Shown here: piece by piece, positions 1-64,000 of the stretch
How positions within the stretch are numbered: the first letter of the stretch is position 1
Layout of the letters: each line of letters begins with the position of its first letter
Translations under genes and position numbers: made by a program
Notes under the pieces: model-generated
What the model was told of the DNA's origin: nothing
Seen by the model: the letters and a program-made list of their open reading frames with translations, nothing else
The model's database searches: none
Assembly (NCBI GenBank): GCA_013115135.1
Contig: JABANP010000083.1
Coordinates: forward strand, 62,001-126,000
From: Perkinsus olseni
Lineage: Eukaryota > Perkinsozoa > Perkinsida > Perkinsidae
Direction of reading: 5' to 3'
DNA: 64,000 bases

Positions 1-42
1 ATGCATTATATATACAGGGTGTTCCCATTCGAATCGAATTTC

Positions 43-81
43 AGTGATTCGCATATCGAATGATTCGATATGCGAATCACT
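43..81. repeat. Perfect palindrome, 19-bp arms, 1-base centre
   Basis: Bases 43-61 are the exact reverse complement of 63-81, with one unpaired G at 62. The flanking bases (42 and 82) do not pair, so the arm ends sharply. It is one of the longer members of the window-wide palindrome class described in the findings. Confidence 0.95.
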
Positions 82-778
82 AAAATTAGTCTAATTCAGC
101 ACATACTACGTGTTTGAGCTGAAACTTGAGTATGATATGCACTAATATATTTATTATTAAGTTTTTTGATATCAGCTAACCGATCGACCGTTTCACTCAC
201 CTGAAGACGCGAAGGTAGCCGTGCCAATTCGTTATACTTCGTTATAATTCGTTTCGCCACACACCGTATGTGTGTCACACATGGTGTGAGATGATTTATA
301 TATGCTTCATATGATGCTTCATTCATGTACAGCCTACGAGTCTCGCAAGAACTTCGCAGAGTACGTCCTTCGGAAGCTTGCCTAGGGTGCTTGTTCGAGT
401 TTCTACTGCTGAGCTTATATGAGAAATACGGGAGATTGCGAGAGAACAGAGGAGAGATTATACACCGCAGGTGCGGATTCGGTTAAATCTCTTCCTCACT
501 CTGGGTCCATGGTTCCTGTGGAGCTGCTCGTATTCGTATTAGTAACTGGCCCTGAGCTTCGAATTTCGGCACATTCAGGACCCACACACGTTTCTCAACT
601 TGACTACGGCTCTTTTCGGGTGCGCAGACCTCCTGCTCTCGGGACCCGAGGGCAACGGGCCGTTGCTGATGAGAAGAAGGACGACAGTCCGACAACTCCA
701 CCAGGTGACTCACTGCAGCCACAATGTGGATTTCACACTGAGCTGTGTTATTGGATAGTGCTCATGCTTCACTGACCA

Positions 779-825
779 TTCCCGTGCAGCCGTCCCTGGA
801 ATTTCCAGGGACGGCTGCACGGGAA
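779..825. repeat. Perfect palindrome, 23-bp arms, 1-base centre
   Basis: Bases 779-801 are the exact reverse complement of 803-825, with a single T at 802. It is GC-rich in the stem and unrelated in sequence to the equally long palindrome at 62194-62240. A 47-nt hairpin could also act as a transcript end, but nothing nearby requires one. Confidence 0.95.
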
Positions 826-1127
826 AGCCAGGCTGGAAAGCCTCTCGGAAGTCTCGGAGGCGGGTAACCTGAAGGGAGACGGCGGAGCTCAGTCGATATG
901 GCTGAGAAGACTCTTGGTAAGCCAGGTCGGGGTCATGTTGGTAATGAAGCTGCGGAGAGTCAAAAGATTCCCACGACCATCCCTCTGCCGCCTACCGCTA
1001 AACTTTGCCTCGTTGGGAATACTTCCCTGAGTTGATGGCCGTATCTCAGGTGAGGAGTTCTCCCTGATGAAGAAGCCAGTAATGGATAGTGAGCACTTGA
1101 AAGAGGAACAAAAGCGTGGAAGGTATA

Positions 1128-1199
1128 TTCCGAGGCCGGGTATTGAACTCGAGTCTCCTGCGTGACAGGCAGGAATACTCGCCAATATACTACCGCGGA
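1128..1199 (-). tRNA. tRNA-Asp (anticodon GTC)
   Basis: On the minus strand the cloverleaf reads in order: a 7-bp acceptor stem with one mismatch (5 against 68), a D-arm beginning TAGTATATTGG, an anticodon loop CTGTCAC giving GTC, and a T-arm with loop TTCAATA. The T-stem has one mismatch. The D-arm and anticodon arm match the usual eukaryotic tRNA-Asp pattern. No CCA is encoded. The two mismatches leave open that this is a decaying copy. Confidence 0.75.
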
Positions 1200-2251
1200 A
1201 CTGATAATTTTTTCCTTCTCCGAACCTGCTCTGATCTTGATGTCTAATGTTGTAGGCCTTGCTCTAGAGAAGGCAGTCTTCGAAGCAGAAAGAAGTGACT
1301 CGGATATTGCTCTGACCGGTGACGTAAATCACAATCCATCTCCATGATGTCTCGAAAGTTTCGAGTCGAAACCCATTAACAGTAAGAACATAAGAATTTC
1401 TTATGTTTGGAGCAGCTGAAGCTCAGCTGCTGAGCTCGTCCAATTCATCTATGCCACAACCCCGGCCCGGGGTAAACACAAAACCTGAAAGAACTGCCAG
1501 CTCCCAGTGGGAAGGACTGCGCAGAATTCAGCCACGACTTGAAGGCGTCGCCTTCGAAATTTATCGGCTTGGTGGCAGCAACTGGTGGCTATAGTATAGC
1601 CGCTATACGGAGTTCACTTCTTTCCAGGAAGACGAGCCCGTTGTTGGGTGATGGTCCGCAGAGGGGCGAGGGACGTGGTGGCTGATATGTACATCGGACC
1701 CACTACAGGGATGATCTCCTACACGGAAACCGAACCTACTAGGTTCAACCTAGTGGGGGGCGCCGTTTTGGGAGCCGCCTAAGGCTGGTGTCGCCCTAGG
1801 ATCTAGGACCTACGGACCGCAGGTCCTGCATCCAAGGGCGACTCACTAGGACTCTGCCCTTTAACACGGGGGAGGCTATCTAGTGCTGTCGTGAAATCTT
1901 CGCTGTGCGCATCAGCTATCTTTCTGTAGACACCGTCTGGAACCAGAACAAGAATGTGAGGGTGCAATTCAAAAGAGCTTAGTGGAAGACAGTGATGTGC
2001 CGGGGAAAAGGGGACCCTAGAACAAGAGATTGAAGAGATTGAATCTAAGAGATCGGAGTTAGTATGGATGCTGGCAACACAAGATACTTTGAGCCAGGCT
2101 CAAAGATGTGTTACACGCTCACATTAACGCAAAGATACGATAGTAACGAGAGCAAGTTCCGTTGAGCTATCTAGCTGATGCTGCGGTCCGAGAGGAGTTC
2201 AACCACGGACGCCCGGCTGCTCTGAAGGTAGGCTGCCAGCCAACTCGGCTA

Positions 2252-3150
2252 GGGGTGCAGGGTGTGCCATTTTTCCGGAAACGCGAAAATATTTCCTTTC
2301 CGGAAATTTCCACTGGAAATATCTGGAAATGAGCGGAAATGATGGAAACACTAAATTTTTGCGCACGCCCTTGCGGGCGCGCAAAATTGTTGACCAATCC
2401 TTGGTCACTTGCTTTCTTGCGCCATTTCGCAACGCACTAAAGGACGGAAACATTATGGAATTACCTCCCCAATGATCGCTTACCGCACCTTCTACCTGTT
2501 GAACACCAGTCATGGCACATGGTAGAGCACCTGGGCCAGGTGACCTGGGCAATGCCCAGTGGGCATCGGGAGAATGTTGATCAATCCTTGGTCACTTGCT
2601 CTCTTGCTTCATTCCTCAGCGTACTCGAGCATGTGAATACGTAAGTAATTGTAAGTGAGTCTTTACTTAAGTTTACTTAAGTAATTGTAAGTTTGCTGGA
2701 CTCCCGAGTCCCTTCGACTCGGCCCATCGACTCAGTCGGTGCGCCAGAAGTCAACGCATAGGCCCAAAGGCCTAAGACTCTTCGGAGCTGAAGACTTATT
2801 GCCCGCCACCAAATGATAGCGCCCACGAAGAAAATAAGTGCCAGTTTTGGCGGAGTTGCGCGTAGACGTAGATCATCCATGGTGGATGACTTACGGCAGA
2901 TCTTCGTCCAGTCCTATCAGGAGTTTTATATTATAAACCACGGAAAAAACAGATTTCATGCGAAAATCGGCAAAAATGGCCGAAAGTGACGTAAATTTTC
3001 TTCGCTTGCGCGAAGGAATGACCCTTCTTCGTGCATACATGTTTCCGGAAATTTCCACGCCGTATATTTCCATCGGAAATTTTCGGAAATTTCCGGAAAG
3101 AAAAATCGCACAAAATGGAAACAGCACACCCTGTAGGGGTGGTCCATGAT
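2252..3150. repeat. Inverted pair of GGAAAT-rich dispersed repeats
   Basis: Two stretches rich in TTTCCGGAAA and GGAAATTTCC words lie about 700 bp apart in opposite orientation: 2252-2360 and 3040-3150. Each has the shared boundary motif CAGGGTGTGC next to TTTCC words, read on the plus strand at the first copy and the minus strand at the second. This supports two diverged copies of one dispersed element rather than simple low complexity. The DNA between them is not part of either copy. Confidence 0.5.
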
Positions 3151-3287
3151 GCTCTGGTAGTCCCTGCTTGATATCGACCAGAGATGGATTTGCATGAGAT
3201 ACTATCGTGAGACACGACCGGATGGGCTCTATTGACAAGATCGGGGAGAAGATCAAAGTCAGTGACTGACCTAAGGTCAGTGACCTT

Positions 3288-3329
3288 GCATCCACGCCTG
3301 TAGCAGGATCCTGCTACAGGCGTGGATGC
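3288..3329. repeat. Perfect 42-bp palindrome without spacer
   Basis: Bases 3288-3308 are the exact reverse complement of 3309-3329 with no unpaired base. It is the only long palindrome I saw in the window with an even centre. An imperfect hairpin (about 3259-3283) lies directly upstream. Confidence 0.9.
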
Positions 3330-4302: not shown

Positions 4303-7300
4303 CTATGCAAGATGTCTTTCCAAAGAAAATCTCTCTTGAGCTTGGGCACTACTTTCCTCTTCCGCTGAACTACCGCTCGCTTTCTCTCCATCCTGCCAAT
4401 CAGCGCTCGGAATAGACACATTCCCAATTAGCGTCAGTGAACAGCTCGAGCTCGATGAGTTCCGCCCATCTCTTCTATCATCCGCCAGTATTTCGGACCC
4501 AACTTCTGTGTCTCCTCCTTGCCATTCACTGTCGTTCACAGCAGCCGGGAGGCCTGAACCATTTAGTTACGGTCTTCAAATTTTATCATCAACAAGCACA
4601 TCTATCAGTCTCGAGTATCTCCCTTTAAGAATTTACGGTGCTACCTTCTAATAGTGATTCCCCATTATTCACATCGCTTCTATCCAGATTGGCTTCGTCG
4701 GACGACCCCGAGTGTACTCGCCCTGAAAATGAGGCATGTCACGTCAGACATGCCCGCGACCCAACCTTCGACGAAGTTCCATCGCACTACGAATATCGAG
4801 GGTAATGATGTGATGAATAGTAGCACAGCAAGCTCAGGAAGTCGATCAAGGTACACTTACGTCCCACTCCAATGCTGGATTCCGAATTAATCCCATCACT
4901 GTCTCCTACATAGTCTCGGCGTCTATTCTGGTCACGGCGAACAGAAACAGGAACTGCAAAACGATAATCTGGCACCAAGTGCTACTCAAATCCGGGCTAC
5001 CTGGACGGGGCGCTGAAGCAGCCGAGTGGTACCGACCCAAAGCACCAACTCTACGCCTCGTCGGACGTCCTCTACGTACAGTGGGAAGTCCCCGGTTTTC
5101 TGGATGATACCTGATGTCCCAGAAGAAGGAATGAATTTCATTCAATGAAACATGGACGATGTATAGAGCCTCGATAACTGACTGTGAGTCACTTACGGAT
5201 CCTGAGTGCCAGTGAGCACTTCCACTGCGTACCCATGTGAACACGTTCCCCAGTCACGTGAGCTTTTGCAAGTACACGACACTGTTGGCGCCTCACCGCT
5301 GAGGCTGTGATCACCATGGGGTGCTTCGAGGGTGATAAGATTGAAGCTGAAGTAGGTGCGCATCAAAAATTCCAGCGTAGCGGCGTTATCTAAAAAATGA
5401 CATTCGTCACGCTAACGAGCTGCATCCTCGTAGATGCAAGGCGCACTCATTAGCTTAGCTCACCGGTTGGGAAGTCATCCAGCAGAACTCCTCTGAGGAA
5501 CATTTCGATTGCACTATCGTCGTCAAGGTCGTCTGGTGCGCGGACTCCGCGCCGCGGAGGCTTTTGATGACGAAGAAGTTACTGCTCACGTTTTCCTCCA
5601 GTATTTCTTCCACCATGTCCGTCACCTGTTGAACATCCTGCAGAGTTCGACTTTATTTCTGAACCGCTGTACGTCACTACATCTATCACTGCATCAGTTG
5701 CCGCCAGGCTCGTTCCCCGAATACGCGCTGTCTCATTGTATCTTATACGATTTATCACCTCGGGCCTCTTAACGAAATGCTGTGGGCTGGATCCTTTCAA
5801 GGAGTTCACCATCTACAAGCAAATGCTCGAAATTACGAACATCACATGACTCCAGTTACTCCCCCATTCTACCTGTTTGATTCTAGCACCAAGGATGGGC
5901 ATGCGGAGACGGTTGCTGCCGAATATCCTGCATTGAGTTCGGTGGAACGCTTCGACTACATTATTCAACACCTGATACAACGGCTTTTCATTTTTGCAAA
6001 TTCGTAGTGCCATCTGACCTGGGCACAGCGGAGCCCTTCGGAAGTAAGGGCGATGTTTGGATAGCCGTAGCGTTCCACATCCAAAGTATTTCCGAGGTAG
6101 GCAGCGGCATCATCATCGATGAGCTGCACTTCTTCAATGAGGGCAGCAGAGATCATCTCGTACAGCTCGTCTGTGGGACAGGCATGGAGGAAGAACTTAT
6201 GCTGCTTCACCTACGGACATGACGGCGTGATCACAAAGCCGAAACACCTCTACTAATGATACTAATGTGCTTCTGGTTGAATTTCAGCCTACCAGATCGT
6301 ATGCCTCGCCGAGCCTTGTTTTGTTTTCCTTTATGTTTTTCGACAAGTGGAAGTAGCAGCGCCCTGATGTAAAAGTTCCCTCCGAGACGAGCTTCCATAC
6401 ACTTTACTTACCATTTCTGATTCCCGGTAGATAATCTTCGCAGGCACGTATCGCCCCCTGGTGGGCGTCATGGAGACACAGGTTGACTACATCGCTTAGC
6501 TGGCGCGTATCATTCGTCAGCAGCTTAACGAGCTTGTCAAGTTCGGCCAGGAGACCGTAATACGTCTCGTAGCACTCCTCGTCACAAAGGCCCATGAGGA
6601 ATGGAACAAACGTATGATGGGCCTCGTTACGACGATTATACCTTCGAGTAGCGAGCTCAGAATACGACTGATCGCTCTGATTCTCCACCTACCACACGCG
6701 GGTTGTTCCTATCCAAGCAACCTTAAGGCCACCACGGATAATCTTATTTTGTGCATCCATGTATAAGGGAAACCCAGACGGGCAACTCCTGATGAACCAG
6801 TAAAGTGAAGAGATCATACCTGAGATGGGTCTTCATAGGCACATCATTCAAACCCATGCTCCTTCTCACTGGCTCCTCCGACCATGCAGGAGAAGTGCTG
6901 ATCTCCCCAGACACCTCGATGATAAATATACTCTTCGGCTAGCTCTTGATCATCTTTGATCATGTCCACCATGGCTTGGTTCAGCTTGTTATCACCAAGA
7001 GCCTCCTCCAGCTGGTAATAGTTAGTAGTTGGCTGGGCCCCCGCAGCACGCCGTCGAGGCATCGATGACATGATTTCCTGTATCTGTTGTAAGCTAGGCT
7101 GGTGGTGAGACTTCTGTGCGCTGGAGACCCTCACCTTCACTCTATTGATTCGACCAGTGTCCGTGTAATAGCGATGCTGGGATACCATGGCATTGTAAAT
7201 CTGCGAGGCTGTTAATCCCAGGGATGCCTGTTCGAATACGAAACGGGTTATCTGCTTCGGGTGCTGCTGCCTATCTAAATCAATTGGCACTGTGCCATGC

Positions 7301-7577: not shown

Positions 7578-7909
7578 ACTGAAGCAGAGTAGGAAACCGA
7601 ACTACGGGAAAGACACCTGATGAGTAGTTATCCTGTTGCGAGCAGCACTGGGCTACGCTCATGATTACCCAGGGTGATCTCGGTCCGTGAATCACGGACC
7701 GTGATTCACGGAGCGCATCAGAGTGCGCAGCTTTTGCACCAATGCATTGCGTTCTTGCGAGCTGAAAATTCCAACTTGGAATAGGTGATTCCAATGCACC
7801 ATTATTGACATGACAGACAAAACGCAGGCAAGAACCACATGAAACACCATGCTCGAAACGGAAGATGAAGTCAAATTACACATATGTCGAACGAAATACT
7901 ACGAGAACT
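7578..7909. other. Short intergenic spacer with hairpins
   Basis: This 332-bp stretch separates the start of the transposase from the end of the coiled-coil gene on the same strand. It holds a one-base-centre palindrome at 7681-7701 (10-bp arms) overlapped by another at 7699-7711. Any promoter of the transposase gene should lie here, but I recognise no specific element. Confidence 0.55.
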
Positions 7910-10505
7910 TCATTGCTCCGACTGCATTTCCGGTTGTTTTCCACCTTTCAAACCTTTAACCTCCGACCCGATCACTCCATAATCCGCAGTCCGTACCTGA
8001 CGGTGAGAAGTGAACCATCATAGATGAGTTCGTCTAGTCTACAGATACTCGATGATAGAGCGCAAACACTAGCTTACCTCAGCTCGCAGATTCAGAGTTT
8101 CCTGTCCGGGTCTCAAGCCTAGGACCGCTCCCTCAACCGGTCGCAAGATGCCCGAACGGATAAATTCCTTGCCATTGTAGAGGCTCACGTCCTCTTCGAC
8201 GGTGAATGTGCCGCCAATCATGACACCATATTTATTCGGATCACTGTTGCTCTGGATTACTCGAGCTTGTATTCTCGGTTTCGTAGTCTGAGAGAGATCA
8301 GTGGCTGACTCTTTTCAGTCGAGATAGCATCGTGAAATTATACGAGTATGCGGAAATTGGGTGAAAAATGCAACATGCATCCCCGGCAGATTACCCGCTT
8401 CGTAGATATACACTGCTTGTCTTGAAACGACCGCTTGCTACACGATGAGGACGAAGACGACGGCGGAGTTCGACCCTAAGAAAGTTAGAATGGCCCTCCG
8501 ACAAAATGACAGTCTGTCATTGACTGACATGAAGACGATCAGCTTCAGCTTGGACCAAGTGTGCAAAGACTACCTGCAATCGATTAGATCTCCTCCCAGG
8601 CGTGGGGGGTCCCGAATCGGGACTCCCGATACACCCGGCTTGGCTTTGGCCCCGGCCCTCGATTTCGGTCGAGGCTTCTGTTTGGCAGCGGCCTTGGCCG
8701 CTGCTCTAGCTTTTGGCTTGACGAGCAGAGACGCTGTGAGCGTCGACGCAGACGAGGGTTGCAAGGAGTCGACCTCGGTCTCAGAAGGCTGATCATTCAC
8801 GCTTTCTGGTGATTCGCCGATGGAATCTTGAATTCTGAGTGTAGCCTCCTGATATCACGAAAGATTGTAATACGGAAATTAGAGACATCGTGTTATCTGG
8901 ATGCACATTGTGAACACTCACACCGAAAAACCGTATGACTTGATCAATATGGTGAAAGCTTTCTCACAATCATCGTGGACGATTACAAACTCTCGATATG
9001 CATACTATGACTCTCACTAAGACTGTCTAAGTTGTCACGGTTTCTCACTGTTCACCCAGCAAACTACTACATGGGCCGCTTTCAAAGCCGCAATATGTGC
9101 GCTGAGCGCTTCAATCTGCAGATTTTGTGTATCCTGAAAGTCGGATATAAGCAACTCCTAAGGGAAAGTGCGGCACTTTAAGTGCCACGGCGAGTTACAT
9201 GGATTCTCCTCGCCTCAGCTAGTTCCTTCTTGGTGGTGTCTAACTCTCCTTGCGCCGCCGTAACCTGAGGGGGTTCCCATAGCAGATGCCCGAGAGTGAA
9301 GGTTTCAATGATCGCACTTCTGCAGACTTGAGATCCAGCATTCCGGTCTGCTGTGCAAGATCTGCCTTAGCCTGACGTAGGTCTTCAATCTCCCTCCGGA
9401 GTCCATGGAGCTGAGAGAGCCACCACAATGGTGGCACCACTCAAGCGATCCGAGTTGAAGAGTCAGCACCTCTTCTCCAAGGGCTTCAATGCGCCCTTCC
9501 GACTGCAACGCTTTCTCGTGAGCATCCCGAGCTGCTTTTTTCTGCGCCTCGGCATCCCGCTCCGCCTGCTGCCGAACGTGTATCTCCGACTTGTGAGCCT
9601 ATGGTCGACTGGGTTTGGAAGCATGATATATGCCTGACTTAGGCAGGCATATAGGCAGGCTGCCTACGTTCAAAGCCTGCGTCAACTCAGCCTGCATTTT
9701 CTCCTCGACGTCTCTAACTGTAGCCTCGGACTGCTTCATCCTAGCAATGGCTCGTTCTTTCTGCGATCTCTCGCTGTCACAAACCTACTTAGGACGTACG
9801 ATTCAACGGAACAGAAGTTTCGTAGGCGGGTACTACCCTCCGGGTAGTGTTGAGCACGCCAATTAGTAACCCATCGGATGGGTCCCATCCAGTTACCTCT
9901 TTCGCCTGAACGAGCTCCTTCTTCTCACGAATTAATTGTGCCTCGGCATCTTTGAGCTCACAACGCGTTTTCTCAAGCTTCTTACTCGTGAGGTCGAATC
10001 TAAAATCCACTCGCACACGCTGTGGCACTAGCGGCACTCACCGCGGTGAGTCTCACCTCATCAAGGTACATTCCAAATCAGCTGTTAACATAGCTACCCT
10101 TTCATAGGCATCGAAAGAACTCCCCTCATCAACATCATCGTCAACCAGCACCGCCTGAGAATCCAGGGGAGATCCCGTACAGTAATACTATGACTCGGAC
10201 ACCTGCACGTAGGTCTCAGTCTGAGGCTGTAAGTTCTGATAGGCTCTGAAATTTTCAGAGCCCTGCCCCGGATGGATGTCATACTCAATTTTGTTGGAAT
10301 TCCTGAGGAGATTGAAACATATCTCGTCCCAACAGTTACTTAATCATTACCCTGATAATTCTGTCTGTAGTTTCTGCAGCTTGTCTCTTGTAGCCTCATG
10401 GTCTTCTCTCTACAGGTTACATCGAAATAATGACACTTGCACGGCAGTCTCTCCTACTTGACGAGCAATCATGCGTTTGCGACGTTCTCCCCTCTTGTTG
10501 CCCAT
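7910..10505 (-). CDS. Multi-exon coiled-coil protein of unknown function
   Basis: I do not recognise the family. The start at 10505 opens with MGNKRGERRKRMIARQ. Exon pieces that read through cleanly between GT-AG sites include REDHEATRDKLQKLQTEL, AVLVDDDVDEGSSFDAYER, FDLTSKKLEKTRCELKDAEA, VCDSERSQKERAIARMKQ, LHGLRREIEDLRQAKADL and DTQNLQIEALSAHIAALKAA. The heptad-like Leu/Glu/Lys pattern over roughly 9080-10020 predicts a long coiled coil. Next comes an Ala/Lys/Pro-rich basic stretch (about 8580-8800) and a compact C-terminal part (GVMIGGTFTVEEDVSLYNG, about 8060-8290), with the stop at 7910-7912. One join near 9420-9450 is unresolved: a small inverted repeat sits where the coiled-coil frame changes. 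Several introns carry one-base-centre palindromes. A structural or scaffold role is inferred only from the coiled coil. Confidence 0.6.
9652..9890. repeat. Palindromes inside introns of the coiled-coil gene
   Basis: 9652-9666 (7-bp arms), 9869-9883 and 9876-9890 (7-bp arms, overlapping) are perfect inverted repeats around one base. The pair at 9869-9890 resembles a hairpin at 23025-23047: both read AACCC..C.GA.GGGTCCCATCC on the plus strand. Confidence 0.75.
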
Positions 10506-11195: not shown

Positions 11196-13137
11196 CCGAA
11201 CAGTTTGAGATTCGAACGTTGCGCTAAGACGACCCCTCCAGCCCATATTGCCTGTTTGTTGATGATGCATAGCATGCATTGTAGACTCGGATCGTCCTAC
11301 CAGCACTGCCAACTCGACCAAATATGCGGCTGTGGCCAATGAACAATCCTGCGCCAAAAACGCGCGCGCCACGTTCATCGATTATGAGAGCGCGAAATGG
11401 CACCTTTGATGCGGGTTCGAACCCCACAGGATTCATTTTTTGGTGAGATATCGGACTTGAGGAAAATCAACGAACTTCTGAACAAGTGATAAAACTTGTT
11501 CGGTCATTGCTAGTCTTCGAGTTGCCGAACCGGGAGCGCTGTTGCTTCGAGTCGAAGCGCCGCCGACGCTGCGTCGGACGCTGCTTTCATATCTTTGAGT
11601 GCGATGGGCGAGCAGCCGACCGTTAATAACGGTCCGTTACCCTGATGCCAACAACCCGCTGAGGAGCGGGCGACACACACGGCGTTTTGGGCTGGGGACA
11701 TAGTGTGAAGAGCACACATACGACGAGAAACACTGAGATTTACTCGAGCTCAATTGCCCAAAATAAAGCCCCCACCTCGATTTTGTTGGACGCTTAGGGC
11801 TTGGTGCGCACTGCGGACTCAAATAGCCACTTCAGTAAGGGACCCAAGTTGGTTAAATCCTTCAAATTGGACTCAATAAGCTACACAAAACTAGAACTAG
11901 AAGGAAAACTTATATGTTACGCTCATGGACCATCCCGGTGATTATAGATCACAATTTATAATACCTACGAGCTCTGGGGCGAGTCTCGCACATATCGAAC
12001 GGACTAGGCTCACACTCGTTGCGGATAACTAGTATACAAACGCCGGGCGTCTCCGCCAGACGCTGCACAATGATCATATTATGCAAAAGGGGCGCGGGTC
12101 CTGTAGCCAGTAGTTTGATGCAATTGCGGTCCAACAACCCCGAATTAGGGACCTCGCAGAAGCCAGAAGCCCCGACTCAATTTCAAGGAAGGCCCCTCAG
12201 TGAGATTTTCGAACTCCAGGAGGCCGAATGGTCTCTCCCGAGAAGCAGCGCACTCATGCTCAGAGTATAACGTTGTCAGCCTGAAAAGTGGGTTGCCTAA
12301 GAAATTCTTACTAAGAATTTCTCAGCAAAAATCTACTGCGCAGCGCACTATGTGCTACCATAGCGCATAGATTAAGTGGCGCTACTACGGAATCTACGCA
12401 TATGGATCAGTATCGTACTACTGGCGGACGTTGAGTCTTCTTTGGCATGTAAATTTCCTCTTCGCTCGCTTCGCTCGCGAAGCCTGTTACCTTGCTTGGC
12501 CTATCCCCCATACGGTATGGCCAGCTTGAGATAGCAAGATCTGCTTGGGATTACATGGCTTTCTTGGTTTAACAACTATTGCTTGGACTAGCCGTGTCAC
12601 GCCTAGTTCTAGTCTAGTCCATCGGGCAGCGAGGGTACCTTCGTTTCCGAAAAGATCCAAGCTGTGGAGCCTGGAACAACGGAATTCTCGTCGAACCAGA
12701 TATTGAGCCTCAATAATTGAGGTTACCAACGGAACTATATCTAAAGATGATTTCCAGGTGGGTCTCACAATTCAGACCGTTTTTCGACTCTTCGATCATC
12801 ATTAGTTTGTTGAAGCGGGAGTTGTCGACAAGGATATTAAAGCCTTCAGTAAGCTCACTGGCCTTGCGAAAGTCTATGCCATAGACTCTATGGTTGGGAT
12901 GTCGTCGGTGAGATTGGCAAAAGTGCACTCGCGTTGGGACGAAATGACTTTACCTATTTATGTGTTCGTATGGGTAAAGATAAGCCTGATGAAGGGAGGG
13001 CTAGAGGTAGTTGATTTTCATAGTAAGTAATGGATTTGTTAGTTCCATGAATATTTAGGTTGTCGTAGTCTTGAGCCATCGCCGATGGCCCATCGGATCC
13101 CTCCAACTCAAGGGCGGGCTCTGTAGCACAACCTGAG
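11196..13137. other. Gene-poor region with tRNA-like piece and hairpins
   Basis: No convincing gene. It contains the tRNA-like segment at 11344-11435 and one-base-centre palindromes at 11618-11634 (8-bp arms) and 12300-12322 (11-bp arms). ORFs are short and mutually overlapping. An upstream exon of the 13138 gene could lie near its right end, but I cannot place one. Confidence 0.5.
11344..11435 (+). tRNA. tRNA-like sequence, probably degenerate
   Basis: A good T-arm (GCGGGTTCGAACCCCAC) is followed by AGGATT, which pairs with AATCCT at 11345-11350, and then by a run of seven T. The D-arm and anticodon arm do not fold normally, so no amino acid can be assigned. It is either a decayed class-II tRNA or an inserted 3' half. 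Confidence 0.35.
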
Positions 13138-15195: not shown

Positions 15196-16286
15196 GGAAA
15201 AGAGATAGAGTCAATAAGGGGCTATGGCTGATTCAGCCGGGCTGAATATATCCAACAGTTGCAGCACTTCAATTGCTCATCTCATCGACCCGATGATTGA
15301 TCATCAAACGTTGATGTCATCCGCACTGCGAGCTATTAGATATAAGATTTGCCCTATAGCAGTTTCCATAGCTGAGCACGCGGTTCACGAACATGCTCAG
15401 CTCGGAGTGGCGCAACTGTGACTGCACGCGGGACTCAGTACTAAGGAGTCCGTGAAACCTCCGACGGCGGGGACTGGGAGAAAGGGACGGTTATGGCACA
15501 CCTGAACAGGGCATGTGCCACGTGCTTCTGTTGAGGACGACAGGCAAAGGAGTGTGAAGACTTGGGAACTCGGAAGTCAGTAGAGGGTGTAGTAGCTCTT
15601 AGACAAGAAGAGCAAAAGCGTGATGGAATGCAATTAGATTATTCGGCACAGGAGCAACGCCGGCCCGTCTGCCATTGCACCGAAGTGCTGGGCGTGCAGA
15701 GAGGCAGTTGGAAGGTGGTCCACGCGTCTGCGCAGGACCACTCCTCGGGACTGCCATGCACAAATTACCACTCCAGAAGTTAGTGATCGTCACGCAGCTA
15801 GAACTAATATCATCATCGGCAACGACTAGTTTGAGTAGTGCAGGATTGTGTGACTACGTCCCCGGCCGCGATGGTTTCACCCTCAGTAAAGCCTGCGGCC
15901 TTCCTTGCACAAGATAATGAACAGGAAACCAATACTTTGAAAACTTCTCTTCCTTGTCTCCCTTCAGCTTCTCATGTCCTTCAAGGACACGTAAAACAAT
16001 CTGTTTCAGGTTACTATCTGGACTATCCTCAAGGTTGAAGTCTCTGTATTTGTTTCGCGTAAGTTACGGAGTGATACCATCTTGACGAGGATGTGATTCT
16101 TGTGTTATCTCAATCTTTTGGCCGTGCAAGTGAAAACGAATCGCTACGCTACACTTGGCAGACTGGCTCTGTCTGACAGGGTCTGTCACCTCGATCCGAT
16201 ATTCTTGAATGGCAGAGAACTCGTCTCAGACGAGTCGTCTGTCGCGAAATCAGACAAAATACCCACTGGGGAGGCCCGCAGTATCT
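15196..16286. other. Intergenic upstream of the C2-domain gene
   Basis: No gene supported. It contains one-base-centre palindromes at 15975-15989, 16219-16235 and 16227-16241, the last two overlapping. The 16219-16241 pair lies in a possible 5' extension of the C2-domain gene, because an upstream ATG at 16209 is in frame with the chosen start at 16287. Confidence 0.5.
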
Positions 16287-23986: not shown

Positions 23987-24017
23987 GACTTTTTGATGAC
24001 GGCGTCATCAAAAAGTC
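23987..24017. repeat. Perfect palindrome, 15-bp arms, 1-base centre
   Basis: Left arm 23987-24001 and right arm 24003-24017 are exact reverse complements around a single G at 24002. Confidence 0.95.
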
Positions 24018-43800: not shown

Positions 43801-46800
43801 GGAGATCACTTCGGTATCAGAGGACCCGAATGGGAGGCAGTCGCCATGCATCTTGGTCGCCCATCAACTCAGCAAGCTCCCTACTCTCCGCAACATGCCC
43901 AATTCTGAGCTCATTGCGATTGCCCAGGCAGCTAGTAGAGCTTGGGGTAAGATTTCCCTGGCTGACCTCTGCGGCGTGTCTATGAGATTTGCTAGGACTC
44001 CGAGGCGTCCCTAAAAAGATCGTGGTCGCCTTGTGCGGGCGTATCTGTGCTGAGCTGGTTGACCGAGAGTGCCCCGACCGTGTCCGTCAAGCTCGGCAGC
44101 AATGGAGGTAGGCGGCGGAGTTGCGCTAGGGTTCTCGTCTTATAATTTTGACCACAAAGCGAAATTCTCCCGCACTATCTGAAGGAAAGCTTGTTGTCTT
44201 TCCCAGTTTCCGGACTCCCGAGATATTTTCGGTAAAACAGTTGGTCATCTCCATGATGACTATTAGTCATTGACTAATCACCACGTCTATCTTCGTTCGA
44301 TCTGAGGGGCCGTCTCGCCACGCCTCAGCTTGGGTGTGGCTGTTGACCATGTTACAATGCGCAACTGTAGGAAGCCGTATGGTGATTTCGGCCGTTAGTT
44401 CGGGTTGAAGTGACGGCAGCGGAACGAGCTATATGGGGCCTTCTGGTGCCGGAGCCGAAGATGGTCGAGATTCCACACTGGATCAAGACTCTCATGTGTT
44501 AGGGAGCTTGTTGCAAGTTGACAGTTTCAACGACTTGCGGGCTCCCAGGGTTACAAAATGACGATAGAAAGTCTTGTTGAAGCGGGAAATGAGGCCTATC
44601 GAGGGATGAGCCTGAGGACATACAGGTGTATTAGTGAGCGTGCTGGTTCAAGCAACCCGCTTTTGGAGGGTGATGAACTGTCAAGCTGTAGAGGATCAAG
44701 AGGAGCGAGTCTCGACGAAGCTTATAATGAGTGGTCCTCATATGTCTCACGCGCTCTACAGTTTGATACTCTTGACGAGGAACTGCGGGTCTTCATCATA
44801 GGCAGGTTCCGTTGTACGGCTTGCTTGGTGGCTCTTGGTTGTACTCTGACGACCTGAAGTGTCGGCTCTCAGATACACGGCTTCGACTTGGGCCGAGGTT
44901 ACGGGAAAAAATAACTGCCAACAGCCTCCACGGTCGCACATCTCATTCAGAACAGAATAACGGAACAGCCCAGCTGTTAAACTATGCCGAATCTTCTCGC
45001 TCAGAAGATATGCATTCATACCAACTATCACTAGCAACAAATCTCCAGGTGTCGAGGAGGAGTGGGATAGGAATACGCACAGCGAAGATTGCCACGAGCA
45101 TATCTTCTGCACAGGGCCTTCTGACCCGGATATCGAGAATCTATGAAGATTCCTCATGAACCCAGAATATCCCCTTCCGAATCAGGAGTTGTGAACTGTC
45201 CGTTTCTTCTTGAGTTTTTCTGTTTCCTCGGGGAAGAGACGCCAGTCCGATCTGAGCTCGGGGCTGTGGTTTTTTTCATCATCGCCTCTCGCACTTGAAC
45301 GGCGATCGTTCCCATAAAGTTACAATGCGATCGGGTTAATATGCAAATCGATCAAAACGCTGTGGAGCTCACAAACTAGAGCTGTGGATTCTAAGTTAGG
45401 AAGCTGGTATATTATATACTAGCTACAGCGTTTTGATCGATAACTAGAGCTGTAACTAGAGCTGTAACTAGAGCTGTAACTAGAGCTGTGGATTCTAAGT
45501 TAGGAAGTTAGTATATATTCGTTGGTCGATGGTGATGCTTGCAGGTATCGTCAGGCGGGCGGCAGACGTCTGTGCTCTCCTCTGCCACAGGAGCCTCTGT
45601 CTGATGCGAAGAAGGAGAAGGTCGACGATGAGATGGCCGTTGGCGAATTTAGCATGCGAGAATCAGTTCAGAACCCTGGTAGGGTCTCGATATCTGCTAG
45701 CTCGGATTTTTGGGTATCTTAGGTTGAAGATGTGATTGGAGAGATCCTTCTGCCTTCCCTGGAGGACCCCGTTACAGTAGTCCGATGGGCTGCCGCCAAG
45801 GTAGGGCCCTTTGGTAGACTGGTCGCTGATGACGCCAGATCAACCTATGGATTCTTTTTTTCTCGAGGAGGATGACAAGGACCGTCCTTATCATCCTCTT
45901 CGAGAAAGTAAGAGTTACGTCCGACGATGCAGAGTCTCTCAGCGTCGTCGGGCAGGCCCCTGCCATCGTAACCTCGAAGCGTTGTACTCTAGTCCTACTA
46001 TTCTCCCACTGAGGATTTCGTGAGCATCTCAGGCGCTAGGCCGGGTTTCGAACGTTCTACCATCGGCAGCAGCAGTGGACGTCCTCGCAGCCCTCACTCC
46101 AGACGGCGATGATGGCCTTAGAAGTCTCGGGTGCGCTCATCGACTGCATGGAACGAGCCTTGCGGTTGCTGAGATGCTACGCAGGTGAGTCTGTCAATGC
46201 ACAATCGGCCCGATGAATTTCGCAACTCGAGCCGGTGACGTGTTCTCATAGCGCAAAGAAGATGGACTGTGCTCTTCCTCGTTGTAATAGTTGTAGAACG
46301 CAGCTTAAGTACATTGGCCTCTACCGCATAGTGAAGAGGTAGAGCAGGTAGAAAGTGAAATAGTTGAGCGAAAGAGTTGATAATACGAAGCTAGTATGAG
46401 CGCAGCTCAGTTGTGTATGTAGACAGTGCCCCTGTCAGCAGTCGGGCTAGCATCGCTTCATGATCCCTGTGATGACGTGATATAATTTCGTGGCGCGCGA
46501 AATCTGATGGATTTCAGGCTGGGATCGACAGCCCTCGCCTTCGATAGCCCTGAGTCTCTCGGGTCCCTGCTCGACAAAGTGGCCAGACCAGCGTTCGAGT
46601 GTCAAGGCCTTGCAGCTACTCGGGACGCCGCCTGCTTCGTCTTGTGGGCGGTGGCGAGGGGTGTTTGCGATCAGGAGATAGTTAGCGGGAATTTGGACAT
46701 GATTTTGAGACTATTGGTGAGAAGCCGCTATTGGTGGCGTATCACGGCGCTCGACGACGAACTGCTCAGCGCAGAATGGAATCCGTCACTGACCGGGAAA

Positions 46801-59486: not shown

Positions 59487-60760
59487 TCAGTTCACACCCC
59501 CAGTATTCAGGACTGAATCAGCGGTACTTACCACTCCGACAGTGATGCTGAGCCAACCGACCCCGATGAGAATGAATGTGATTAGACCAGCCGTCCTGAG
59601 CTGCCCAACGGCGGAATGAGACGCTAACACTGATATTAAAAATCCAAAAACAATCTGAGGGAAGATGATTCTCCATGAGTACGCAGCAATTGTTCTTCGG
59701 TAGACGTACCATGGCTCCAATTGTTGTCAACATCCAGAAAAAAGCAGCCAGACGCGGCGGATTCCGGAAGAGCTGACGGAAAAGCAAACAACAGTAATTG
59801 TCATACGCAAGATGCACGCGCTGGGAATTATACTGGATGATTCGCAACAGCAGCCCGGGGCCGAAATTTCTTTCAAGAGCTGCAAAATTTTTACTCGAAA
59901 ATGGCCCATCCGTCATACTTCTTAGTTGCGGACGAGCTTCCACTTCGGGTGAGCAGCAATCGAAAGCTCTCATCGGGAAGTGGACGACGCTGGAGCCGCA
60001 CGCTCTTCGTATTAATGAGCGAACGCTGCAAAATTTCCAACAATCGATGGCGTGGCGAAGAATTTCATAGGTCACCTGCGTGTGAATGAGAGCAAGCTCT
60101 GATGCAGCCGCAGTGGACATGCTCCTGCATTGGTCGAACAAAAACGCTTTTTGTGTAGCAAAGCGAACGAAAATATTATCTGCATCCCGCTCCCTCACCA
60201 CTACCCATCCGAAGCCTTTGGTAACAGCCTTCGCCAACAACGGCTGGGTGCGCTCAGAGTAGATCACGATGCCCGCTTGGAGGGATATCAGGCACGCAAA
60301 AAGCAGCGATAAGAGAATCAACTGAGGAACTTCGTTTAGTACTAACGCTGTAGAAATGCTATTACATCCGACTGGCGTTGGTTGGCAGCGAAAATTGCAA
60401 AGATGACGGAAGCGATCACTGAGAGCACCGACCACATGACGCAGAAAACGAGGAGGATCTGAAGTGACGAAAACTGATGAGACCGGAAAAGGAAAACTTC
60501 TCTGCTCTGCTATTTCGTTCTTGTTCGTATTTTCATTTATTTTTTGTTTTATTTTCAAGGCTCTGGAATGCACGGTCGATCATGTCAACTGCCTTTCTGA
60601 AGGGCTCTTCGTGTGAACGACGGCTCGGGACACATCACCACAATGACCACCATCTAACGCATACTCCCCTGAGGTCGGGGATGATCCCCACCGACTCGGT
60701 GGCACCGAGTAGAGCGATGATAAAGATCACGTTCCGTGCACAGGGCTAGTGTGACTGCGA
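59487..60760 (-). CDS. Multi-exon membrane protein, four predicted helices
   Basis: Exon fragments on the minus strand read as coding between GT-AG sites: an upstream piece EEPFRKAVDMIDRAFQSLEN (near 60600); helix 1 ILLVFCVMWSVLSVIASVIF; helix 2 VPQLILLSLLFACLISLQAG, followed by a soluble part ERTQPLLAKAVTKGFGWVVV and ASELALIHTQ; a 50-nt intron; a basic loop RSLINTKSVRLQRRPLPDES; helix 3 RLAAFFWMLTTIGAMIVFGF; and helix 4 TAGLITFILIGVGWLSITVG. Four helices with a large loop suggest a tetraspanin-like layout, but conserved motifs are absent. Gene ends and the join between helices 1 and 2 are uncertain, and overlapping palindromes at 60688-60710 lie near the 5' end. I do not recognise the family. 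Confidence 0.5.
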
Positions 60761-60993: not shown

Positions 60994-61776
60994 ATGTTCA
61001 CAGCTGGCAGTGTCGGTTTCAATTGGCGACCTACCATTCTCGAATGTCCTCTTTCCATGGCTCTCTCATCTTCTGGTTCATCGAATTCCGCACCTTCCAC
61101 GCCGCCGGCTCGCCTACGACGACGACTCCGTCTGCTTGACACTCCTGTGTTGTCATTCGTGGTCATGATAACTCTGAAAGATTCTCAACTCATCGCCAGG
61201 AGGCTCACCGTGTCTCCACTTTTGTACCAATCCACTTTTGAACCAAACGTTTTTGGTGGTGCAAAAATATACGAATTCGTGACAAACTCAAGCACCGACG
61301 ATTGTGTTGTACCAAATTTTATACTGGGGAAATTGTCCACTTCTATACCAAATGGGCGAGCGCTCAGCGTCCCTACCACACCTAACTCAACCAACTTAAC
61401 TTTCGAAGGAGTGGGCGTATGTCACTTTTGGATAGAATGGTATGCGTGTTCGTTTGGTGCGATGGTCAGAGTCGTGGGGTGCTCATCGGGCGGTAATGGG
61501 TACGAATCGTACCGTACGATACTGGCTAGCAGTGAGTTACTTTCAAAGGAACGGCTCAGTCCAACCCCCGTCCATCATCTTCGGCTTCGTATCGACATCT
61601 TTCTTTGCGTTCCTTCCGACCACCCCACCACAACTCAACCCTATCATTCTTACATTGAAAAACGTGTAGATTGCTCCGAGCTCGATCACTTAAATTACAA
61701 ACTTCCCCGACCCCTCGACGAGGCTGACGGCTCTGGCTCAACAACTGCGATCGATTCCGCCGTCAAACTTCATTGA
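60994..61776 (+). CDS. Open reading frame of 260 codons, doubtful
   Basis: An uninterrupted frame starting MFTAGSVGFNWRPTILECPL with one hydrophobic segment (TPVLSFVVMITL). No family is recognised. The DNA contains repeats of a CCACTTTTGNACCAA word, so the frame may simply reflect low stop-codon density. Reported because 783 bp without a stop is longer than most chance frames here. Confidence 0.25.
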   Translation: MFTAGSVGFNWRPTILECPLSMALSSSGSSNSAPSTPPARLRRRLRLLDTPVLSFVVMITLKDSQLIARRLTVSPLLYQSTFEPNVFGGAKIYEFVTNSSTDDCVVPNFILGKLSTSIPNGRALSVPTTPNSTNLTFEGVGVCHFWIEWYACSFGAMVRVVGCSSGGNGYESYRTILASSELLSKERLSPTPVHHLRLRIDIFLCVPSDHPTTTQPYHSYIEKRVDCSELDHLNYKLPRPLDEADGSGSTTAIDSAVKLH

Positions 61777-63377
61777 ATGCCGTCCGTGCAGGCATTACTT
61801 GGTAATTGTCCTACAACACGAAGACGATTGTTAGCTGGAGTATCCAGCCTGGAGACCCGATCTTCATCAGCCTCGCACCAACCCACAGAATTGTCTTCCA
61901 AAACAGCTTTCCTCTGGGCTACCGACTACTTCTCGTACTCTACCGCTCTATCCATCGTTGTCACAGGCTCGTACTGACGATGGATAATCGTAATAATCAT
62001 GAGTGAGACTTGTAGAAAAGTTAATAACTTTAAGTTATTACTCTGATGGCAGCGGTGCCAGTAGGATCCCCTTTAATATGCATTTTACCAACACCCTTCC
62101 GTGCCTCCACGTGCATCGTCAATTGCTGATTCCTTCGCAGTTTGGCAATCGTTTGGCAATGCCGGTAGAGTTAGAGCAGGATGAATAACATAGACAAACT
62201 TTTGGATCACTATAGCGGCTATAGTGATCCAAAAGTTTGTTCGGCTATAGTATAGCCGCCCACTTCCTTTGAGTTGATCCGCAGTAGCCCCAAGCGTTGG
62301 GCTATAAACTATTCAACAACGCATGTAAAAGATTCAATTCGGCCCAGGGTACTATTGATACTACCTCGTCAAAGAGAAGACTACTATTCTCCTCAATCGT
62401 AACCGGAGTGTTCGTGCCATCGATTAGGCCCCACCGTATCAATTCCCGATGTCGGCAGCTGATACCTGTGTCTGATCACCAATGACATCCATTGCTAAGA
62501 GCTTCCTCTCACGCTTGACAATGTCCAAAGATTCCTTCTCAGAAAACTTAGGCAGTTCAACAACTTTCAGATCCGTTGCACAGACTGTTACTTAACCGAT
62601 ATCACGCGGGGTATTGAAGATTCGCTGATCCCTGCAATACACAGATACTATAATACTAAGCCATGTCGTAGAATACCTTGCCATGAGACACACGGCTAAC
62701 TTATCAATGTGAGGACAATCCCTGGGAAACTTCCATTTAAATGTGTTCAACCAAACTCCCACCTCGGTCCGGCACTATCCCCCCGAGTACTACCATTTTT
62801 CTCATTTCTCGAAGCCTCAAATGAGGCTACTGAGGCCCTCGTGGTTCCAGCAGCAATCATTTTCTTGTCACTTCATACATTCCTCAAGTACCCTGCCCAA
62901 AAAAGAAGGCTCGACCATCAAAGAAAGAAAAATGAACAAAATTAACTCTGTGCAATGTCAGTGAAATTATGTCACGAGAAGTCAAATAGGAAGTGCCATG
63001 AGTCTCGAGTGCGATAAAAACATTTCTAGGACATCAGTACTGAATATGCCACAAGCGTCAAGCGATTTGTAGTATGCGTCGCATACTATGCGATCGCCAC
63101 TTCAGAGTGTGACAATCCAAAGTTCAGTCGATTCGCGAAAGAGTGGTACTCAACCCACTTTTCCAAACATATGCGAGAAATACTCCGAAATAGGAACGAT
63201 TATGGTACAAAAGTGGTTCGCGAAGCGAACCGCTTCCCGAAGGGAAGCTTTCCAGAAGGGGGCGCGCGCTACTTGATTTGGTTCAAATGTGGATTAGTAC
63301 ATAAGTGGCTGGATCAGGCTCACGAGGAATCGATTACGATGGCTCGCGCTTTTTACGTTGCAAGATCGCCATTCGAC
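61777..63377. other. Intergenic with long palindromes
   Basis: No gene is supported. One-base-centre palindromes lie at 62022-62040 (9-bp arms), 62194-62240 (23), 62242-62258 (8) and 63070-63088 (9). Two adjacent hairpins with a GAA loop (GGTTCGC/GCGAACC and GCTTCCC/GGGAAGC) lie at 63213-63250. Confidence 0.55.
62194..62258. repeat. Paired palindromes: 23-bp arms then 8-bp arms
   Basis: 62194-62216 and 62218-62240 are exact reverse complements around one G. One base later, 62242-62258 is another palindrome (CGGCTATA, G, TATAGCCG). The second reuses the core GGCTATAG of the first palindrome's centre, and the same core palindrome appears at 1587-1601. Confidence 0.95.
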
Positions 63378-63643
63378 GGGTGAAGTACAAAATCCAAGGG
63401 AAAAGTACAAAATCCAAGGAAGCGCGTGCGGCAGGGAGGCAAAATCAGCAGAAAAAAACCCTGAACTGCGGGTGAAGGCAGGAACGGGAAACCAGAAACC
63501 CCTCCCGAAACCCGACAGGGCAACCCGATCCCGAAACTGTTACCCAGGGCAACCAGAAACCGGAACTATTACCGTGGGCAACACGATCCCCGAAAGTGCC
63601 TCCTTGGATTTTGAACCTTTCCCTTGGATTTTGGGAATTACCC
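63378..63643. mobile_element. MULE-type MITE with 9-bp target duplication
   Basis: The 266-bp element begins GGGTGAAGTACAAAATCC and ends with the inverse of GGGTAATTCCCAAAATCC, so both ends carry matching terminal inverted repeats, extending about 40 bp inward (63384-63425 against 63596-63638). It is bordered by the direct repeat CCATTCGAC at 63369-63377 and 63644-63652. Short non-coding elements with TIRs and 9-bp duplications are typical of Mutator-like families. The interior has repeated CCCGAAAC and GGGCAACC words and no coding potential. The small number of TIR mismatches suggests moderate age. Confidence 0.75.
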
Positions 63644-63691
63644 CCATTCGACGCATTCTCAACGTTAGAAGTTGAGCTACTTATCATCGTA

Positions 63692-64000
63692 ATGTTGCGA
63701 CCCTTCCTTTCTACCGGTGCCGTTGTTCGCATTACTCCTGCGTATTCATGTGCAGCCCAGAGGAGGTAAGTCATCGCAAACCTGATGAGGGCTTTATAGT
63801 CATCGATGCAGGTTCTATCATGACAACGTGCTGGACCACTTCAAGAACCCTAGGAATGCTGGCAAGCTCGACAAGAAGGACCCCAACGTTGGCACTGCTG
63901 TTGTTGGTGAGAACACCAGTCCTGTTGAGTCCACAGTATCGTTCTACATGTGTTGAAACACCACTGTGTTGTTTACGGATTTGTTAGGGTTTCTCTCCGC
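63692..64000 (+). CDS. Mitochondrial iron-sulfur scaffold IscU, 5' part
   Basis: IscU is the scaffold on which mitochondrial Fe-S clusters are built from cysteine desulfurase sulfur. Exon 1 (63692-63765) encodes an N-terminal leader (MLRPFLSTGAVVRITPAYS) rich in Arg, Ser and hydrophobics and without acidic residues, as in mitochondrial presequences. A 46-nt GT-AG intron follows. Exon 2 (63812-63906) gives YHDNVLDHFKNPRNAGKLDK and DPNVGTAVV, the family's N-terminal signature. A donor GTGAGA at 63907 opens a second intron. A possible acceptor at 63987 leaves ten or so bases of the next exon, but the real one may lie beyond the window. The three cluster-binding cysteines lie outside this window. 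Confidence 0.9.

What the first reader, a model, noticed from the sequence alone, without database searches (positions are those of the whole stretch)
1..64000. Large family of unrelated perfect palindromes with exactly one central base
Seen directly: 19 perfect inverted repeats with arms of 9-23 bp and a one-base centre: 43-81, 779-825, 7681-7701, 10242-10262, 12300-12322, 14789-14819, 23048-23066, 23861-23879, 23987-24017, 24112-24138, 25352-25374, 25643-25663, 25810-25828, 29206-29224, 30489-30519, 56450-56468, 62022-62040, 62194-62240, 63070-63088. At least 35 more have arms of 7-8, and two near-perfect ones have arms of 21-22 (34349, 45861). A random 64-kb sequence should give about 0.25 with arms of 9 or more (64,000/4^9) and about 4 with arms of 7 or more. 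Most arms share no sequence, so this is not one repeat family; what they share is the odd-length geometry. Only one long even palindrome was seen (3288-3329). They concentrate in introns and intergenic DNA. Inference: a specific mutational process (hairpin-primed repair synthesis, polymerase-theta-like snap-back, or opening of transposase-made hairpins) repeatedly writes inverted copies in this genome.
Basis: partly seen in the sequence, partly recalled or inferred. Interest (0 to 1): 0.9.

Follow-up and report, generated by a model that had tools for sequence, protein, structure and literature searches.

The report
Hairpin scars of jumping-gene excision
The odd one-base-centre palindromes scattered through this Perkinsus olseni genome are most likely scars left where hAT-type jumping genes cut themselves out and the cell repaired the hairpin-capped break in one strikingly uniform way.

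Summary
The window has 140 odd palindromes with arms of 7 or more (about 4 expected), and arm length peaks at exactly 7 (92 of 140). The cause is one 22-bp structure: T1-7, then the reverse complement of T1-8, then T2-8, T being any 8-mer. It occurs perfectly 36 times, 0 times in shuffles, and 0 times for 6, 7, 9 or 10-bp versions of the design. Paralogous copies show the ancestral state: T once, 14 bp shorter. This is what a hAT transposon predicts: 8-bp target duplication; flank hairpins whose one-base centre is the complement of the base next to the element; hairpins opened to long 3' tails; tails annealed through the 8-nt duplication. T carries a hAT-type bias (T at 2, A at 7). The genome has hAT transposase domains and near-identical short elements with perfect 8-bp duplications. 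Known: hAT hairpin footprints. New here: many natural scars (an estimated 10^4 genome-wide) with essentially one repair product, unlike the heterogeneous Ac/Ds footprints. Verdict: new variant of a known kind.

The parts
1351..1372 (.). perfect 22-bp footprint T1-7|rc(T)|T2-8, T=CTCGAAAC
1587..1608 (.). perfect footprint, T=GGCTATAC
1732..1753 (.). perfect footprint, T=GAACCTAG
2545..2566 (.). perfect footprint, T=CTGGGCAT
3266..3287 (.). perfect footprint, T=CTGACCTT
5129..5150 (.). perfect footprint, T=GAATGAAA
5538..5559 (.). perfect footprint, T=GCGCGGAG
7684..7705 (.). perfect footprint, T=TCCGTGAT; a second overlapping one (1 mismatch) at 7691-7712
8609..8630 (.). perfect footprint, T=GTCCCGAT
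9165..9186 (.). perfect footprint, T=AAAGTGCC
9869..9890 (.). perfect footprint, T=ACCCATCC
12701..12722 (.). perfect footprint, T=TATTGAGG
12872..12893 (.). perfect footprint, T=GTCTATGG
13075..13096 (.). perfect footprint, T=GCCATCGG
16220..16241 (.). perfect footprint, T=CTCGTCTG
21185..21206 (.). perfect footprint, T=ATCCCAGC
23349..23370 (.). perfect footprint, T=CAACCATC
23751..23772 (.). perfect footprint, T=CTCGGAAA
24849..24870 (.). perfect footprint, T=GCTGTGCG
25356..25377 (.). perfect footprint, T=CATAGTGG
25504..25525 (.). perfect footprint, T=CATCGGAG
25533..25554 (.). perfect footprint, T=TTGTCACC
25646..25667 (.). perfect footprint, T=GTCGTGGA
25745..25766 (.). perfect footprint, T=AGCTACGC
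25805..25826 (.). perfect footprint, T=ATTTAGAA
26206..26227 (.). perfect footprint, T=GCGCGGTG
29208..29229 (.). perfect footprint, T=CATAGAAT
33924..33945 (.). perfect footprint, T=GGAACGCC
34103..34124 (.). perfect footprint, T=CGACGGGG
44256..44277 (.). perfect footprint, T=ATGACTAA
53240..53261 (.). perfect footprint, T=GTGGACAA
54073..54094 (.). perfect footprint, T=ATATGGTA
60688..60709 (.). perfect footprint, T=CCACCGAG
61499..61520 (.). perfect footprint, T=GGTACGAT
62017..62038 (.). perfect footprint, T=AAAGTTAT
63072..63093 (.). perfect footprint, T=GTATGCGA
43..81 (.). long palindrome (arm 19): deeply opened hairpin; the other TSD copy (CATTCGA) lies to its left
779..839 (.). long palindrome 779-825 (arm 23): deeply opened left hairpin; second TSD copy CTGGAAA at 833-839, preceded by the predicted G
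23861..23879 (.). long palindrome (arm 9), centre G; paralogue L053 reads TCGTATTC, so the centre is the complement of the 8th base
   Evidence: read by eye
23987..24017 (.). long palindrome (arm 15), centre G; paralogue L053 reads GATGACGC, followed by roughly 300 bp that the window lacks
   Evidence: read by eye
62194..62258 (.). arm-23 palindrome 62194-62240 plus a right-side palindrome 62242-62258 around the second TSD copy (TATAGCC): read as both hairpins opened deeply and joined without annealing
2250..3141 (.). candidate resident hAT-like element: terminal repeats CAGGGTGTGCCATT / CAGGGTGTGCTGTT flanked by an 8-bp duplication TAGGGGTG (which lacks T at 2 and A at 7); holds footprints itself. 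No transposase shown.

Best explanation
The palindromes are excision scars of hAT-type cut-and-paste transposons. (1) An element sits between two copies of an 8-bp target duplication T. (2) On excision the transposase nicks 1 nt inside the flank and joins the flank strands into hairpins, so each hairpin reads T1-7, complement of T8, complement of T7-1: a palindrome with one central base. (3) The hairpins are opened well away from the tip, on the strand that leaves 3' tails of 8 nt or more. (4) The two tails are complementary over T8'..T1' because both flanks carry T; they anneal, flaps are trimmed, gaps filled. Product: T1-7 + rc(T) + T2-8, 22 bp replacing 8. (5) When a hairpin is opened deeper and joined without that annealing, a longer odd palindrome remains with the other T copy nearby. 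Shown here: the structure, the ancestral empty sites, the base identities, hAT domains and 8-bp duplications in the genome. Inferred: steps 2-4 as enzymology, and the identity of the nucleases (Mre11-type or SNM1/Pso2-type) and polymerase.
For: Only one unit length works: with the design T[1..L-1]|rc(T)|T[2..L], perfect hits in the window are 36 for L=8 and 0 for L=6, 7 and 9-14 (L=5: 5, against 1.7 in shuffles); three Markov shuffles gave 0 for L=8. With majority-rule T, 36/34/23 hits with 0/1/2 mismatches versus 0/0/0-1 in four shuffles; pooled 318 kb 105/73/68 versus 0/0/2 in one shuffle. Of 46 places with w-x-w'-y-w (w 6 nt), 36 have both outer bases as predicted for 3' tails, 5 have one side as for 5' tails, 5 one side with neither; the full 5'-tail product occurs 0 times. 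Of 140 palindromes with arm >=7, 104 lie in 22-mers with up to 2 mismatches; of the other 36, 11 have the second T copy within 40 bp with T8 or T1 = complement of the centre, against 1 with the wrong base. Empty sites: of 30 footprints covered by an alignment to another place, 10 were scored empty (8 bp; 9 with T exact, the tenth, L053:393, doubtful), 13 shared, 7 other, of which L001:989 holds T exactly and is 14 bp shorter when read by eye. Among direct repeats of T2-7, the predicted end bases are found in 127 of 289 at an 8-nt interval, against 2-20 at every other interval from 2 to 30. T bias: T2=T plus T7=A 143 of 356, P=2e-10; T1=T or T8=A depleted, 51 of 356, matching the Hermes and hobo preference nTnnnnAn (PMC10368747, PMC11226609, passages). 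hAT dimerisation domain: 21 hits; one 581-aa ORF with DUF4371 and Dimer_Tnp_hAT; L004 element with terminal repeat TAGAGATGGGCA and 8-bp duplication GTCCGGAG; a 506-bp family with 12 copies 99-100% identical: perfect 8-bp duplications at 11 of 11 insertions checked (ten 504-506-bp copies counting L038, and one 2.87-kb relative). The same centre rule is described for Ac/Ds footprints (PMC5873905, passages).
Against: I ran no search for filled alleles and saw no locus in all three states (filled, scar, empty). No scar could be tied to a named element family; the 506-bp family shows T at 2 in 8 of 11 but A at 7 in only 4 of 11. MULE transposases are also present (38 hits, 32 over the cut-off). 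Known hAT footprints are short and heterogeneous, whereas here intervals 2-7 are not enriched, so a special repair habit must be assumed; a small excess at interval 22 (13 of 105, chance about 7) is unexplained. 25 of 36 window palindromes outside 22-mers, and 30 of 35 in the random loci, lack a recognisable second T copy, which must be put down to deletion or decay. In the hAT loci the wrong-base control reached 2 against 6 of 22. The right flank of the L004 element holds extra TCCGGAG copies, so its duplication is not a clean case. The T2/A7 bias is moderate (40%), and shared scars in duplicated loci were not removed from that count.
Confidence: 0.9

Rival explanations
1. Same scar chemistry but made by another hairpin-forming cut-and-paste superfamily, such as Mutator-like (MULE) elements with 8-bp duplications.
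For: 38 MULE-domain hits in the genome, 32 over the cut-off; from memory, some MULEs make flank hairpins and 8-9 bp duplications. The superfamily of the 506-bp elements was not established.
Against: Unit is strictly 8, never 9; T2/A7 bias fits hAT; the elements with 8-bp duplications have hAT-like termini, by recalled resemblance.
Confidence: 0.06
2. Replication template switching or snap-back synthesis (hairpin-primed, polymerase-theta-like) writes inverted copies.
For: Produces inverted copies in principle; long single palindromes exist.
Against: No reason for a fixed 8-nt unit, a 1-nt centre, a third direct copy, a centre equal to the complement of the 8th base of the empty site, or a target-site bias.
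Confidence: 0.02
3. Assembly or amplification artefact.
For: Reads were not available.
Against: Scars show graded decay (36/34/23 with 0/1/2 mismatches), some are shared with paralogues about 7% diverged (L001/L033, window/L053), and they sit at T-biased sites.
Confidence: 0.01
4. Functional palindromic sites, for example dimeric protein binding sites.
For: Dyad symmetry.
Against: Arms share no sequence (only one 15-bp core occurs twice among 140), and some paralogues lack them cleanly.
Confidence: 0.01

Closest known systems
Ac/Ds (hAT) excision footprints in yeast, Candida and plants
   Same: Inverted repeats centred on the complement of the base bordering the transposon, from hairpin resolution (PMC5873905, passages).
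   Different: There, per that paper, 28 different footprints among 128 C. albicans revertants with P insertions up to 3 nt, and palindrome arms up to 20 nt in S. cerevisiae. Here one product, the whole 8-nt duplication inverted between its two copies, dominates.
Hermes / hobo hAT transposition
   Same: 8-bp target sites nTnnnnAn (passages); flank hairpins with a 1-nt offset (recalled).
   Different: Target bias is weaker here; the element responsible is not identified.
TcBuster (hAT) footprints in human cells
   Same: Short complementary insertions attributed to hairpin opening (PMC3499496, passages).
   Different: nnnTAnnn target and short, varied insertions or deletions; no triple copy in the passages seen.
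mPing excision repaired through duplication microhomology
   Same: The target duplication guides repair (PMC4561436, listing with title and start of abstract only).
   Different: By its title mPing repair is precise; here the hairpin-derived tails anneal and leave a 22-bp scar (inference).
V(D)J coding-joint P nucleotides
   Same: Off-centre hairpin opening leaves palindromic additions (recalled).
   Different: No target duplication to align the ends; additions are short (recalled).

Membership tests
hAT excision footprint | 8-bp target duplication underlies the scar | tested here: met
   unit length 8 only; empty paralogues hold T once (9 exact of 30 aligned)
hAT excision footprint | centre base is the complement of the base that bordered the element | tested here: met
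   36 of 46 triple copies on both sides, full 5'-tail alternative 0; paralogue L053 (by eye); 127 of 289 at the 8-nt interval
hAT excision footprint | target bias nTnnnnAn | tested here: met
   143 of 356, P=2e-10; moderate strength
hAT excision footprint | hAT transposase and elements with 8-bp duplications in the same genome | tested here: met
   for hAT; for the 506-bp family, whose superfamily is not established
hAT excision footprint | usual outcome (not defining): short heterogeneous insertions or deletions with opening near the tip | tested here: not met
   intervals 2-7 not enriched for the predicted bases; intervals 0 and 1 could not be scored this way
hAT excision footprint | filled allele of a scar site holds a hAT element | not tested
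MULE footprint | 9-bp duplication (recalled as typical) | tested here: not met
   0 perfect hits for L=9; MULEs with 8 bp cannot be excluded
Template-switch mutation | variable arm and spacer lengths, no fixed unit | tested here: not met

The most novel reading that the evidence does not exclude
In this lineage hairpin-capped breaks are repaired through essentially one channel: hairpins are opened 8 nt or more from the tip into 3' tails and rejoined by annealing the duplication-derived tails, so that nearly every visible excision writes the same 22-bp triple copy. The genome then holds of the order of 10,000 natural, datable repair events of one defined lesion, an archive from which excision rate, hairpin-opening depth and end-joining rules can be read directly.
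Probability: 0.55. Interest if true: 0.75.

Novelty: new variant of a known kind. Interest (0 to 1): 0.62.

Why it matters
Transposon excision is often hard to see once the element has left. Here each such excision leaves an unmistakable, alignable 22-bp mark that records the exact 8-bp insertion site. That makes historic excision rates, target preference and the in vivo handling of DNA hairpins measurable from sequence alone, in an alveolate far from the usual models, and it explains how odd palindromes can come to litter a genome. The same scan can be run on any genome.

Tried and rejected
One shared repeat family: rejected, only one palindrome core occurs twice among 140. Even or longer-spacer palindromes: no comparable excess. 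The apparent L=10, offset 3 signal (62 hits at up to 2 mismatches) is, by reasoning, the same 22-mers read with a shifted frame. Full 5'-tail product: 0. Tip-opened Ac/Ds-like scars: no enrichment (that script dropped simple 6-mers and could not score intervals 0 and 1). The search for duplication plus terminal repeats gave 9 rows, several of them probably chance (with 6-bp duplications 17 rows, 7-bp 6, 9 and 10-bp 0). tRNA-Leu 24285-24374 overlaps an 8-1-8 palindrome; this may just be its variable arm. The 18S rRNA search did not complete twice, so the organism rests on protein identity. The two readings of long palindromes against L053 were made by eye because the MAFFT alignment was poor in parts. 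In one search the first BLAST setting failed and the script fell back to another. One search opened an unrelated paper (PMC3239319, outline only) through a mistaken identifier; it was not used.


Full report
Observation. All 19 listed palindromes are there. Spacer 1 stands out: 48 maximal inverted repeats with arms of 8 or more against 0-3 for each of spacers 0 and 2-12 in the window, and 40 against 2-9 for each of spacers 0 and 2-7 in twenty 10-kb contig starts elsewhere in the genome. Forty Markov simulations give a mean of 4.2 (maximum 12) with arms of 7 or more where the window has 140.

What it is. The arm-length histogram is not a decay curve: 45 with 6, 92 with 7, 20 with 8. Listing them showed overlapping pairs offset by 7 bp. 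The underlying object is T1-7 | rc(T1-8) | T2-8, 22 bp, with T an arbitrary 8-mer. A scan over unit lengths 5-14 and offsets 0-3 found 36 perfect cases at length 8, offset 1, none at lengths 6, 7 and 9-14 with offset 1, and none for length 8 in three Markov shuffles. Allowing decay, 36, 34 and 23 non-overlapping cases have 0, 1 and 2 mismatches, against at most one in each of four shuffles. In 318 kb pooled (window plus 38 loci; L009 and L015 dropped as near-duplicates of L007 and L004) the numbers are 105, 73, 68 against 0, 0, 2 in one shuffle; beyond that the background takes over (95 against 33 with 3 mismatches, 329 against 277 with 4). Of the 140 palindromes in the window 104 lie inside 22-mers with up to 2 mismatches.

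Ancestral state. In the window, 38 loci and L053, 30 of 250 footprints (up to 2 mismatches) are covered by an alignment to another place. In 10 the other copy has 8 bp where this one has 22 (in 9 of them T exactly; the tenth, L053:393, has one mismatch in a doubtful alignment). In 13 the other copy has the same scar; pairs are counted from both sides here, so these are about 7 distinct scars, one of them (window 15295) in a weak alignment. 7 are otherwise, 6 of them in alignments of 70-76% identity; the seventh, L001:989, contains T once and is 14 bp shorter by eye. So a single T was turned into the 22-mer, a net gain of exactly 14 bp. Some scars lie inside hAT elements themselves (L001:989 is in a stretch homologous to the L004 element).

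Mechanism. In Ac/Ds footprints the inverted repeats are centred on the complement of the base bordering the transposon and are explained by hairpins on the flanks (PMC5873905, passages read). Write the left flank as T1-8. A nick 1 nt inside the flank and hairpin closure give T1-7, T8', T7'...T1': the 7-1-7 palindrome. Opening on the strand that leaves a 3' tail, on both sides, gives tails T8'..T1' and T1..T8, which are complementary. Annealing and filling give T1-7 T8'..T1' T2-8, the observed 22-mer; deeper opening gives the same product after flap removal. Opening to 5' tails would give T, rc(T2-7), T, which occurs 0 times; of 46 triple copies of a 6-mer in the window 36 fit the 3'-tail product on both sides, 5 show a 5'-type base on one side and 5 neither on one side. 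Among direct repeats of the 6-mer core, the predicted end bases occur in 127 of 289 at interval 8, against 2-20 at each other interval from 2 to 30; interval 3 (20 of 227) and interval 22 (13 of 105) exceed the 1/16 expected only slightly. So the short, tip-opened scars typical of Ac/Ds are essentially missing. This derivation is my inference; the 1-nt offset of hAT cleavage is recalled.

Long palindromes. 36 of the 140 window palindromes are outside 22-mers. In 11 the second T copy lies within 40 bp with the base predicted from the centre, against 1 with the wrong base; in the 20 random loci 5 of 35 against 0; in the 20 hAT loci (near-duplicates not removed) 6 of 22 against 2. Clear examples are 43-81, 779-839 and 62194-62258. 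Most of the rest have no recognisable second copy. For 23987-24017 and 23861-23879 a paralogue on contig C367 (L053) shows the unscarred site, and the centre base is the complement of the 8th base there (read by eye). Palindromes with a second T copy reach arms of 23 in the window and 30 in L024, so hairpins can be opened far beyond 8 nt, which favours deep opening followed by annealing over a nuclease that cuts at exactly 8.

Which transposon. T has T at position 2 or A at position 7 in 143 of 356 positions (178 scars with up to 1 mismatch; P=2e-10), and T1=T or T8=A is depleted (51 of 356). Hermes and hobo prefer nTnnnnAn (PMC10368747 and PMC11226609, passages). The genome has 21 hAT dimerisation-domain hits, including a 581-aa frame with DUF4371 and Dimer_Tnp_hAT. 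Element L004 529-1975 has hAT-like termini (TAGAGATGGGCA, recalled resemblance) and the duplication GTCCGGAG, with further TCCGGAG copies on its right. A 506-bp family with termini CAGTGTGTTG has 12 copies 99-100% identical and three 2.87-kb relatives. All 10 insertions whose ends were fetched (nine short copies and the C153 relative) plus the L038 copy carry perfect 8-bp duplications, with T at position 2 in 8 of 11, never T at position 1, and A at position 7 in 4 of 11. That family is young, so transposition may be current; its superfamily was not established. MULE domains are also present (38 hits, 32 over the cut-off), which keeps a rival open.

Host. A window protein is 97% identical to Perkinsus olseni FOZ60_010481, and contig C367 has the same length, 45,952, as the longest contig listed for that protein. 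Domain searches find Mre11 (one hit, with a TAG inside), an SNM1/Pso2-type DRMBL domain, family-A polymerase hits on four contigs, one of them next to a 1441-aa frame (a theta-type candidate, my guess), and one weak Ku exon; so candidate hairpin openers and end-joiners exist, but none is linked to the scars.

Numbers. Twenty contig starts hold 38 perfect scars in 200 kb (15 of them in one locus, L039), the window 36 in 64 kb. Scaled by length the former is about 12,000 perfect scars in 61.5 Mb, or about 7,000 without L039; the sample is 0.3% of the genome, all from contig starts, so this is an order of magnitude only.

Known or new. Hairpin-derived hAT footprints are known. In the open-access library I found no description of this 22-bp product, of a genome-wide set of such scars, or of hAT elements in Perkinsus (searches; for the longer result lists only the first 15-20 entries were seen, as listings). 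Yu 2004 on Ac/Ds hairpins in yeast is not held; Lazarow 2012 and Huefner 2011 were seen only as cited in PMC5873905. Introner elements of the related Amoebophrya (PMC7789003, passages) have 3-5 nt direct repeats and look like a different thing.

Noticed in passing
window 3288-3329: The only long even palindrome (arm 21, no centre base) starts directly after footprint 3266-3287; unexplained, possibly a second event without the 1-nt offset.
   Followed up: partly
window 34347-34393 and 45859-45907: Two near-perfect odd palindromes (arms 23 and 24 with up to 2 mismatches) look like decayed long hairpin scars.
   Followed up: partly
window 24285-24374: A predicted tRNA-Leu contains the 8-1-8 palindrome 24328-24344; probably its variable arm, or a scar in a tRNA gene.
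   Followed up: no
L038 1428-1933 and 11 further places: A 506-bp transposable element family, 12 copies 99-100% identical, and three 2.87-kb relatives on C153, C534, C759; perfect 8-bp duplications at all 11 insertions checked: a recently active family.
   Followed up: partly
window 36000-52000: Scars are nearly absent here (3 with up to 1 mismatch in 16 kb against 70 in the whole window); reason not established (coding density or younger DNA).
   Followed up: no
window 26789-28411 (-): DUF6740 protein of a family with many paralogues; 20 of 22 hits carry a Perkinsus name, the other two (P0011, P0020) name no organism.
   Followed up: no
L039 (contig C910): Local hot spot: 15 perfect scars in 10 kb, in a short contig with diverged internal repeats.
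   Followed up: no
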